Shown piece by piece: positions 9,964 to 14,274 of a stretch of 40,218 bases of DNA. The notes beneath the pieces are model-generated. The model was given only the letters and a program-made list of their open reading frames with translations. It ran no database searches and was not told where the DNA came from. This DNA is from Candidatus Proelusimicrobium bovinum (GTDB taxonomy: Bacteria > Elusimicrobiota > Elusimicrobia > Elusimicrobiales > Elusimicrobiaceae): assembly GCA_902791965.1 (NCBI GenBank), contig CADAXZ010000007.1:1-40218 (forward strand). Reading direction: 5' to 3'. The position numbers were made by a program, and so were the translations under genes. Each line of letters opens with the position of its first letter. Positions within the stretch are counted from its first letter, which is position 1.

Positions 9964-10509
9964 TTATCTGTGGCTTTGCCCGCCGATATTGTGTACTATT
10001 CTGTCATCTCCGTCTTTTTCTTTTATATGCACATGGATAATATCGTCATCTGCGGTAATAACTGTTCTGCCGATATAATTTGCCATTACCGGTATTTCCT
10101 TATGCCCCCTGTCAACCAAAACCATAAGTTCCACCTTTTTAGGGCGGCCGCAATCAAAAACAGCATCTAAAGCACAGCGTACCGTACGGCCGGTATAAAG
10201 GACATCATCAACTAAAATTATATTCTTTCCTTTTATATCAAAACCGATATTGGCCGCTTTCATTTGCGGGTCATCTGCTACGGTTGTTAAATCATCACGG
10301 TAAAGAGTAATATCAAGTTCGCCCAAAGGCAGTTTTATGCCGGAAAATTTCTCTATCTTATCCTGAAGTCTTTTTGCGATATACACACCGCGTGTTTTTA
10401 TACCTACCAAACATAAATCTTTTGTATCTTCATATCTTTCAAGAATTTCATTTGAAATTCTGTCTAAAATCCTGCTCATTAAGGCTTCGCTTACAATATC
10501 TTTCTGCAT
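9964..10509 (-). CDS. pyrR: PyrR: pyrimidine regulatory protein / uracil phosphoribosyltransferase
   Basis: A 181-aa type I PRTase-fold protein of the PyrR family. It carries the PRPP motif ILVDDVLYTGRTVR (about 95-108), GIKTRGVYIAKRL and VLVDRGHKEIP, all typical of PyrR and not of Upp. In Gram-positives PyrR binds pyr mRNA and has weak UPRTase activity. Here no other pyr gene is in view. I start it at ATG 10509, because GGAGAA lies at 10520-10515. An upstream in-frame ATG at 10539 sits inside a terminator hairpin. The gene lies directly downstream of a leader ORF and attenuator, so expression should depend on readthrough. Confidence 0.92.
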   Translation of the reverse strand: MQKDIVSEALMSRILDRISNEILERYEDTKDLCLVGIKTRGVYIAKRLQDKIEKFSGIKLPLGELDITLYRDDLTTVADDPQMKAANIGFDIKGKNIILVDDVLYTGRTVRCALDAVFDCGRPKKVELMVLVDRGHKEIPVMANYIGRTVITADDDIIHVHIKEKDGDDRIVHNIGGQSHR

Positions 10510-10526
10510 AATTATTCTCCACAAAA

Positions 10527-10555
10527 ATAAAACCGCCATTAAGCAGCGGTTTTAT
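10527..10555 (-). terminator. Intrinsic attenuator in the pyrR leader
   Basis: A perfect 10-bp stem (ATAAAACCGC with GCGGTTTTAT, 9-base loop) is followed on the minus strand by TTTT. It overlaps the stop codon of the leader ORF and ends 6 bases before the pyrR ribosome site. A ribosome following RNA polymerase closely would occupy the 5' arm. The leader has a pair of T6 tracts (10568-10563, 10561-10556) just before the hairpin, where polymerase could pause at low UTP. Confidence 0.75.
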
Positions 10556-10619
10556 AAAAAATAAAAAAGCGGCTGTGTAATTTATTAAAATATTCAAATT
10601 GTTCTTTTGTTTTAAGCAT
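10539..10619 (-). CDS. Putative pyrR leader peptide, 26 aa
   Basis: A short ORF with a strong ribosome site GGAGG at 10629-10625, 5 bases before ATG. It begins MLKTKEQFEYF and ends in RFFIFYKTAA. The T6-A-T6 tract encodes its Phe/Ile/Tyr-rich end. Its stop lies in the loop of the attenuator hairpin and overlaps an alternative pyrR ATG (TAATG). Position and layout match E. coli pyrBI/pyrE leaders, where coupled translation suppresses termination when UTP is low. The peptide itself probably has no function. Confidence 0.6.
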   Translation of the reverse strand: MLKTKEQFEYFNKLHSRFFIFYKTAA

Positions 10620-10637
10620 TGCCGCCTCCGATAATAT

Positions 10638-10643
10638 ATTATA
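10638..10643 (-). promoter_or_regulatory. Extended -10 promoter element for the pyrR leader
   Basis: The minus strand reads TGTTATAAT, a consensus -10 with the TGn extension. It lies at the end of the dacB-like gene. No good -35 is seen. Initiation would fall near 10631, just upstream of the leader-ORF ribosome site. Confidence 0.55.
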
Positions 10644-10646
10644 ACA

Positions 10647-12146
10647 TTATTTTCTCTTTTTCTTACCCTTGCCTTTGTGAGCGGAAGGCTTTTGCTTAAG
10701 ACCTATGTCTGAAAGACTCCTTACAAAAGCATCATGAACGGTATCAATATTTTTCATACGGCCGGCATAATTGTTAACTATGGAACAGAAAACAACCTTT
10801 TTACCGTCGTGCGTTTTAGTATATCCGGCCAAAGAGCGCGCCCTGTCTAAAGAGCCTGTTTTTATAAAACTTTCATAAGCCGCCGTAGTATTTCTTAAAC
10901 GCATTGACATCGTGCTTTTATCTTCCTTACTGCCTGCAACAGGCAGGGAATGGACAAAAACTTCCCCGTAAGGTTTATCTAAAATCTTTTCCAGCATTTC
11001 AACCGTCATTTTACAATCTATAATATTATCACGCGTGATACCGCTGCCGTCAAAAACATCAAAATTTGTTGTATCAATTTCCAAACTTTCCAAAAATTTT
11101 TTTACTTGTTTTATACCTTCGCCCGAACTGCCGCTGCCGCCGCTTTGCGCACTTAATACCCTTATAAGAGTATCGGCATATAAATTAAAACTGCGTTTGT
11201 TTGTATATGTAATAATATCCTTCAAAGAAGGCGAAAAATGATTAAATAATAAGGTTTTATCTTCGTAAGTTTCAGGCGTATTTAAAAGGGCATCCCCCTT
11301 AACCTGAATTTCATTTTTTTCCAAAGCGCGTTTAAAATATCCTGCCATAAATGCCCCTGGAGAAGGCATAGCCGCATATATTTTGACAGGCTCGTCTTTT
11401 ACAGGTATTCTGCCGTAAATTTCCACCTCATTACTGCCCGGAACAAAATTGATATATGTGCTTTCCGAACGGGCAGAAGAATCTGTCTTTACATAACTTT
11501 TAAAAGTTAACCCCGTCATTTCAGGTTCTGTTGCAAACACTTCCGCTATTACGCCGCTTTCCTCATTAGGTGCAAAGAAAATTTCGTAAGAATTATCCCT
11601 TATGCTTAAACCGTCGCTGGGTGCGGCATAATAATTGCCTATGTTTTGGAAACTTGTACGCCAAGGAAGCATAACCCCGCTGAAAATGCTGTTATCGGCA
11701 TAAATATTCCCGTTAATTTTTGTAATGCCGATATATTTCATTTTTTCCACCCAATCGTTCATTAATTCTTCCAAATCAGGCACAAGTTCAAAACGGGCAG
11801 AACCCAAGGTAGGGTCTCCAGAGCCTTTTATATAAATATCTCCGTTTAATTTTTTGCCTTTTATTTCGCCGGAGTAATAAATTTGTGTTTCAAAATTAAA
11901 ATCAGGCCCTAACATATCCAAAGCGGCAGCCGTAGTAAATAATTTTAAAACGCTTGCCGGTGCAAGACGGTAAGTAGGGTTTATGCTTACTATTTCCCCG
12001 CCGCCTACATATTTTGCATATACACTGTATTGGGAATCTTTAAGATAAGAACTTTGGGAAAATAATTCTTTGATATTTTCCCCTGTCTGCGCAAAAGCAA
12101 AACAGGAAAATAAAAAAAAATTTAGAGCAAAAAGAAACTTTTTCAT
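10647..12146 (-). CDS. dacB: D-alanyl-D-alanine carboxypeptidase/endopeptidase (PBP4-type, peptidase S13)
   Basis: A 499-aa periplasmic peptidoglycan hydrolase that trims or cleaves D-Ala-D-Ala peptide links. A Sec signal peptide (MKKFLFALNFFLFSCFAFAQ) leads to the penicillin-binding triad: SVLK (Ser65, Lys68), SFN (319-321) and KTG (429-431). The long insert between the first two motifs is typical of the S13 family. The C-terminus is a basic tail (KGKGKKKRK). A ribosome site GAGGG precedes the ATG, and it follows the upstream membrane protein by 13 bases, so the two are probably co-transcribed. Confidence 0.93.
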   Translation of the reverse strand: MKKFLFALNFFLFSCFAFAQTGENIKELFSQSSYLKDSQYSVYAKYVGGGEIVSINPTYRLAPASVLKLFTTAAALDMLGPDFNFETQIYYSGEIKGKKLNGDIYIKGSGDPTLGSARFELVPDLEELMNDWVEKMKYIGITKINGNIYADNSIFSGVMLPWRTSFQNIGNYYAAPSDGLSIRDNSYEIFFAPNEESGVIAEVFATEPEMTGLTFKSYVKTDSSARSESTYINFVPGSNEVEIYGRIPVKDEPVKIYAAMPSPGAFMAGYFKRALEKNEIQVKGDALLNTPETYEDKTLLFNHFSPSLKDIITYTNKRSFNLYADTLIRVLSAQSGGSGSSGEGIKQVKKFLESLEIDTTNFDVFDGSGITRDNIIDCKMTVEMLEKILDKPYGEVFVHSLPVAGSKEDKSTMSMRLRNTTAAYESFIKTGSLDRARSLAGYTKTHDGKKVVFCSIVNNYAGRMKNIDTVHDAFVRSLSDIGLKQKPSAHKGKGKKKRK

Positions 12147-13767: not shown

Positions 13768-14274
13768 ATGGAACTTATTAAAACTATAAAGAATGTTATT
13801 TCAAAGGAAATTGCCGTCATAATCGGCGGTGCTTTATTTATTGCTTTACTTTCAAAAATCGCAATGTTTTTACCGTTTACGCCTGTACCGGTAACTATGC
13901 AAACTTTGGCTACCTTACTTGTAGCGGCAGCCTTGGGTAAAAAGGGAGCGCTTTCCGTAATTACTTATATTGCTATGGGGCTTATGGGATTACCTGTACT
14001 TAATGTCGGTTTGCTTACAGGCGGCTATCTTATCGGTTTTGTTATTGCGGCTTACTTTATAGGCTATTTATTTGAAAATAAAATCGTAAAAAATATTTAT
14101 ACCGCTTTTATTTCTTTTTGTATAGGGGAACTGATAATTTTAACTGCCGGCAGCCTTTGGCTGATGATGTTTACTAAGCACGCTTTTGCGGCAGGTTTTT
14201 TCCCTTTCCTTTTAGGAGGTTTATTTAAAGTTTGTTTGGCAACTTACATCACTAAAAAAATTAAAAGATGGTAA
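13768..14274 (+). CDS. bioY: BioY biotin transporter (ECF substrate-binding component)
   Basis: A 168-aa membrane protein with five or six hydrophobic segments. It has the BioY signatures FTPVPVTMQTLATLLVAA (about 33-50), YIAMGLMGLPV, and the LLTGGYLIGF loop (about 89-98). BioY captures biotin and uses EcfAAT or works alone. No bioM/bioN is in view. A GGAG site lies 11 bases before the ATG, and a TATAAT at 13725-13730 overlaps the oppositely oriented -10. It is divergent from the 12160 gene and monocistronic. Confidence 0.93.
   Translation: MELIKTIKNVISKEIAVIIGGALFIALLSKIAMFLPFTPVPVTMQTLATLLVAAALGKKGALSVITYIAMGLMGLPVLNVGLLTGGYLIGFVIAAYFIGYLFENKIVKNIYTAFISFCIGELIILTAGSLWLMMFTKHAFAAGFFPFLLGGLFKVCLATYITKKIKRW

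What the first reader, a model, noticed from the sequence alone, without database searches (positions are those of the whole stretch)
10527..10643. UTP-type attenuator with leader peptide in front of pyrR
A compact control region: extended -10, strong GGAGG, a 26-codon ORF, two T6 tracts, and a perfect 10-bp terminator overlapping the ORF stop, then the pyrR ribosome site. This is the architecture of E. coli pyrBI and pyrE, where low UTP stalls polymerase at U tracts, the ribosome catches up and termination is blocked. Finding it in front of pyrR itself, the RNA-binding regulator of Gram-positives, would put one attenuation system upstream of another. I saw no Bacillus-type PyrR-binding loop.
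Basis: partly seen in the sequence, partly recalled or inferred. Interest (0 to 1): 0.72.

Follow-up and report, generated by a model that had tools for sequence, protein, structure and literature searches.

The report
Ribosome-gated attenuator before standalone pyrR
In a small group of gut Elusimicrobiota that have lost the pathway for making pyrimidines, the gene for a pyrimidine salvage enzyme (pyrR) sits behind a short translated leader and a transcription stop signal that a ribosome can cancel, probably a shortage switch of the kind known from E. coli pyrBI, conserved in five species while the leader peptide drifts.

Summary
A covariance model built without the window finds the window's leader as the only good match in its genome. 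I add a predicted gate: the leader's SD pairs with the segment just before the U tract in all five. No PyrR-binding loop is present. The "attenuator upstream of an attenuator" reading fails: these genomes lack pyrB and carB, no PyrR loop was found in the window's genome, and two putative RNA-binding positions of PyrR have changed, so PyrR is probably only the uracil phosphoribosyltransferase. Sister genera with the pathway carry pyrR-pyrB behind a PyrR loop plus a mini-ORF ending in the terminator loop. Most likely this is a UTP/ribosome-coupled attenuator, perhaps with an exchanged sensor. UTP as the signal is inferred, not shown.

The parts
10638..10646 (-). extended -10 promoter element TGTTATAAT, directly after the dacB stop; inferred transcription start near 10632
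   Evidence: TGnTATAAT in all five clade genomes; start site inferred, not measured
10621..10629 (-). leader Shine-Dalgarno GGAGG and its 3' extension CGGC, the 5' arm of the proposed gate helix
   Evidence: pairs with the segment just before the U tract in all five species
10539..10619 (-). leader ORF, 26 codons plus the TAA in the terminator loop
   Evidence: orthologues of 20, 22, 21 and 22 codons all end within -8 to +12 nt of the terminator stem start; codon-position bias within the trio
10565..10573 (-). anti-Shine-Dalgarno segment GCCGCTTTT inside the ORF
   Evidence: strongest SD complement downstream in each species; shuffles as good: about 2% for the window, 18-25% for G017, 0-2.7% for the trio
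10556..10568 (-). U-rich tract T6AT6 (TTTATTT invariant in the clade), proposed RNA polymerase pause tract
10527..10555 (-). intrinsic terminator, perfect 10-bp stem, followed by a T-rich tail
   Evidence: core CCGC/GCGG invariant in five species
9964..10509 (-). pyrR (bifunctional PyrR / uracil phosphoribosyltransferase), own GGAG site at about 10521-10518
   Evidence: NF003549, 219 bits, cut-off 138
10647..12146 (-). upstream neighbour dacB (PBP4-type D-Ala-D-Ala carboxypeptidase)
   Evidence: TIGR00666

Best explanation
It is a ribosome-dependent transcription attenuator for pyrR. Transcription starts a few bases before the leader's SD. In the default state the SD pairs with the anti-SD segment late in the ORF, few ribosomes enter, the terminator folds and pyrR is not transcribed. 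When UTP is scarce, RNA polymerase slows over the leader and the U-rich tract, a ribosome loads and closes on the polymerase, and by reaching the stop at or in the terminator it keeps the terminator's 5' arm from folding, so pyrR is transcribed. PyrR then serves as uracil phosphoribosyltransferase and makes UMP from uracil. Shown here (sequence and conservation): promoter, SD, ORF under purifying selection in the closest trio, U tract, terminator, position of the stop, possible SD pairing, absence of pyrB and carB. Inferred: the ribosome as antiterminator, UTP as the signal, the gating role of the SD helix.
For: Five-species conservation of every element with changing peptide and ORF length; the clade is monophyletic for PyrR, support 100/98. 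ORF translation: pS 0.29-0.53 against pN 0.07-0.09 in the closest trio. The SD/anti-SD helix is in the minimum-energy fold of all five and does not compete with the terminator, so no antiterminator hairpin is seen and the ribosome is the natural candidate. Experimental precedent: in E. coli a stop codon 5 bp before an intrinsic terminator cut termination from about 90% to under 10%, and terminators in the first 100 bp of a coding region act unless polymerase pausing couples translation, as in pyrBI (PMC4824070); tight coupling over pyrL is needed to block its terminator (PMC5021804). Physiology: no pyrB, no full carB, no upp at cut-off in the clade genomes, so PyrR may be the only uracil phosphoribosyltransferase.
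Against: No expression data. Only five species, three of them close. Helix support is uneven: G017's SD pairing is matched by 18-25% of shuffles, and swapping SDs between species does not always weaken it; covariation on four sequences is one pair, reached by 136 of 500 shuffles. The sister species G006 and G013 keep dacB-pyrR and a similar -10 without the leader. No NCS2 uracil permease was found, so the uracil source is unclear.
Confidence: 0.58

Rival explanations
1. Ribosome-coupled attenuator, but the signal is not UTP: it reads ribosome availability or translation initiation through SD sequestration, or an amino acid through the leader codons.
For: The SD/anti-SD gate would make leader translation sensitive to initiation. 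The window peptide has FFIFY.
Against: No amino acid run is shared: ends are RFFIFYKTAA, KTAAFLFI, ALASLFL, ALASLF, ALASLFS. Stops lie at the terminator, whereas in amino-acid attenuators terminators lie more than 20 bp beyond the leader gene (PMC4824070).
Confidence: 0.2
2. It is simply the dacB terminator with a promoter for pyrR nearby, and the small ORF is accidental.
For: The terminator follows dacB by about 90 nt and could also end dacB transcripts; terminator-like sites are not rare here.
Against: A conserved promoter lies between dacB and the terminator. SD, ORF and stop position are kept through ORF lengths of 20-26 codons, and substitutions in the trio favour synonymous sites.
Confidence: 0.1
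3. PyrR or another RNA-binding protein binds the SD helix and autoregulates, as a diverged PyrR site.
For: Sister genera have PyrR loops next to the start of a leader ORF in front of the same gene.
Against: No CCNGNGAGG loop in the leader sequence and no RF00515 match. Positions corresponding to B. subtilis H22 and R146 are N and M in the clade but H and K in the loop-bearing genera.
Confidence: 0.1

Closest known systems
E. coli pyrBI (pyrL) and pyrE UTP-sensitive attenuators
   Same: Promoter, translated leader ORF, U-rich tract, intrinsic terminator reached by the translating ribosome, gene of UMP formation downstream.
   Different: Gene is pyrR in a genome without pyrB; ORF is 20-26 codons and stops at the terminator; predicted SD/anti-SD helix, not part of the pyrBI model as I know it; phylum Elusimicrobiota.
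Bacillus PyrR-binding-loop attenuator (RF00515)
   Same: Acts on pyr genes by a terminator in the leader; a PyrR loop is present in front of pyrR in sister genera.
   Different: No binding loop and no antiterminator here; no pyr operon to control.
PyrR loop plus leader ORF in Elusimicrobium-like genomes (G018, G023, G025, G020)
   Same: Mini-ORF of 14-15 codons stopping inside the terminator, U-rich stretch before it, pyrR next.
   Different: There a PyrR loop lies just before the leader start, and pyrB follows pyrR.
Amino-acid leader-peptide attenuators (trp, his)
   Same: Leader ORF and terminator.
   Different: No codon run, no alternative hairpins, stop at the terminator.

Membership tests
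pyrBI-type UTP attenuator | intrinsic terminator between promoter and first structural gene | tested here: met
   all five species
pyrBI-type UTP attenuator | translated leader ORF whose ribosome can reach the terminator | tested here: met
   stop at -8 to +12 nt from the stem start; codon bias. Translation itself not measured
pyrBI-type UTP attenuator | U-rich pause tract shortly before the terminator | tested here: met
   U fraction 0.45-0.65 in the 20 nt before the stem against 0.25-0.32 in the rest of the ORF; pausing not measured
pyrBI-type UTP attenuator | read-through rises when UTP falls, without a regulatory protein | not testable with these tools
   needs transcript data
PyrR-loop attenuator (RF00515) | PyrR-binding loop with CNGNGA-type loop and GAGG | tested here: not met
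   on the window; present in G018, G020, G023, G025
PyrR-loop attenuator (RF00515) | controls de novo pyrimidine genes | tested here: not met
   no pyrB or full carB in the clade genomes
Amino-acid leader-peptide attenuator | run of regulatory codons in the leader | tested here: not met
PyrR protein family | NCBIfam PyrR equivalog above cut-off, PRPP-binding motif | tested here: met
   DDVLYTGRT intact

The most novel reading that the evidence does not exclude
A lineage exchanged the sensor of one attenuator in place: an ancestral leader ORF plus terminator in front of pyrR was gated by PyrR binding next to the leader start (still so in Elusimicrobium-like genera). After loss of de novo synthesis the PyrR loop was replaced by an anti-SD helix plus U tract that makes the same ORF read UTP directly, and PyrR lost its RNA-binding role.
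Probability: 0.28. Interest if true: 0.68.

Novelty: new variant of a known kind. Interest (0 to 1): 0.5.

Why it matters
It would extend UTP/ribosome-coupled attenuation to Elusimicrobiota, show it controlling salvage rather than synthesis, and give a case in which a well-known RNA-binding regulator appears to be reduced to an enzyme while its own leader changes sensor. Exchange of sensing systems at attenuators of the same gene is documented for other genes (PMC2965389), so the scenario is plausible and testable with the leaders in a laboratory host.

Tried and rejected
RF00515 hits in G001, G005 and G020:C50 were read base by base and are plain terminators without a PyrR loop. Genome-wide counts of TCCNGNGAGG were uninformative; the clade genomes have many by composition. 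I first took the SD/anti-SD helix as well supported by compensatory changes; shuffles and swaps showed the support is moderate, so it is reported as a prediction. MAFFT misplaces the window's SD by 2-3 columns, so the model was built from the other four species. Weak model hits elsewhere (under 36 bits) were taken as chance. A survey of pyrR upstream regions in 52 loci, nearly all from other genera and families of the phylum, found no further PyrR loop or leader next to pyrR. Searches for the Thermus and mycobacterial PyrR literature found nothing useful in the held library.

Full report
WHERE IT IS. The window lies in a 1.5-Mb MAG of a genus in the family that contains a complete 1,643,562-bp genome, G018 (list). 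That length is, from memory, that of Elusimicrobium minutum, and named records of the closest relatives are Elusimicrobia / Elusimicrobiales MAGs. The order on the minus strand is dacB (PBP4), leader, pyrR; gdhA converges from the other side.

OBSERVATION. The hairpin ATAAAACCGC-TGCTTAATG-GCGGTTTTAT is a perfect 10-bp stem, and the TAA of the 26-codon ORF lies in its loop. Alone, the structure is only mildly better than shuffled sequence, so conservation had to decide.

CONSERVATION. Of 18 genomes held for the genus, 15 have pyrR. Five form a clade for PyrR with support 100/98: the window, G017, G007, G011 and G001. All five have, in the same order, TGnTATAAT, GGAGGC, a start codon 5-6 nt after GGAGG, an ORF of 26, 20, 22, 21 and 22 codons, a U-rich tract with invariant TTTATTT, a terminator with invariant CCGC/GCGG core, and the pyrR ribosome site. 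Stops are TAA or TGA at different alignment columns, yet always within -8 to +12 nt of the start of the terminator stem. Peptides are unrelated between the window, G017 and the trio. Within the trio, substitutions are mostly synonymous (pN 0.07-0.09, pS 0.29-0.53), which is evidence that the ORF is translated, although part of the ORF is also constrained as RNA. A covariance model made from the other four species finds the window's leader at 54.7 bits, and finds one good copy per clade genome and none elsewhere.

THE GATE. In every species the strongest complement of the leader's SD is the segment just before the U tract (GCCGCUUUU, CGCCUUU, or GGCCUCU), and this helix is in the minimum-energy fold with or without the terminator's 3' arm. 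It coexists with the terminator, so it is not an antiterminator; if real, it limits ribosome entry. Statistical support is moderate and uneven: dinucleotide or codon shuffles reach the observed energy in about 2% for the window, 18-25% for G017, 0-2.7% for the trio, with one compensatory pair among four sequences.

MECHANISM. With no alternative hairpin and a stop codon at the terminator, the simplest actor is the ribosome. In E. coli, moving a stop to 5 bp before a terminator lowered termination from about 90% to under 10%, while terminators early in a reading frame work unless polymerase pausing lets the ribosome catch up, pyrBI being the example (PMC4824070; also PMC5021804). The U-rich tract supplies a place where low UTP would slow polymerase. 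The step from this architecture to UTP sensing is inference.

WHAT PyrR DOES HERE. pyrB was not found in any of nine genomes of this genus that were searched, several 99% complete, while it directly follows pyrR in G018, G020, G023 and G025. Full-length carB is absent from the clade genomes and present in those four; G009 of the same genus has it in two pieces. No upp reached its cut-off in any genome, and no NCS2 permease in the clade. So these bacteria probably depend on salvage, and PyrR may be their uracil phosphoribosyltransferase. At the positions of B. subtilis H22 and R146, which from memory are among those whose mutation impairs RNA binding, the clade has N and M; the loop-bearing genera have H and K. 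RF00515 finds no site in the window's genome (strict filters) or in the window leader at E up to 10.

SISTER GENERA. G018, G023, G025 and G020 carry a PyrR-binding loop (52.9, 39.1, 32.5 and 41.5 bits; gathering cut-off 54, so sub-threshold, but the loop and flanks match the known consensus, e.g. AAUCCAGUGAGGUU in G018) followed by a mini-ORF of 14-15 codons that starts 10-14 nt after the loop's GAGG and stops inside the terminator loop. This suggests that there PyrR may block leader translation instead of stabilising an anti-antiterminator. A similar proposal was made, as I remember, for Thermus; I could not check it in the library. Whether the clade's leader descends from this arrangement is open: the nearest relatives (G006, G013) have dacB-pyrR with a similar -10 but no leader, and the clade model scores the G018 leader only at 21 bits, E 0.14.

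VERDICT. Observation confirmed; interpretation partly supported; best filed as something that works like a pyrBI-type attenuator, with membership unproven until UTP dependence is shown.

Noticed in passing
L016 1350-1460 (G018), L017/L031 (G020), L020, L022: PyrR-binding loop next to the start of a 14-15 codon mini-ORF whose stop lies in the terminator loop, in front of pyrR-pyrB; suggests PyrR acting through leader translation rather than through an antiterminator.
   Followed up: partly
whole genus (G000-G017): pyrB absent in all nine genomes of the genus searched, full carB absent in most: likely pyrimidine auxotrophy; many genomes of the neighbouring genus g6 and three of this genus also lack a detectable pyrR.
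   Followed up: partly
L018, L019, L023 (G016, G009, G008): These genomes, placed in the same genus, have a PyrR closer to that of G018 (60-63% identity); in G016 and G009 it appears to follow purH; G009 also has carB, so the genus looks heterogeneous.
   Followed up: no
window 13768-14274 (+): Small membrane protein that resembles a BioY-type biotin transporter; no NCBIfam match.
   Followed up: no
L033, L034, L035: RF00515 matches at about 38 bits that are plain terminators in U-rich context: this model gives false hits in these genomes.
   Followed up: yes
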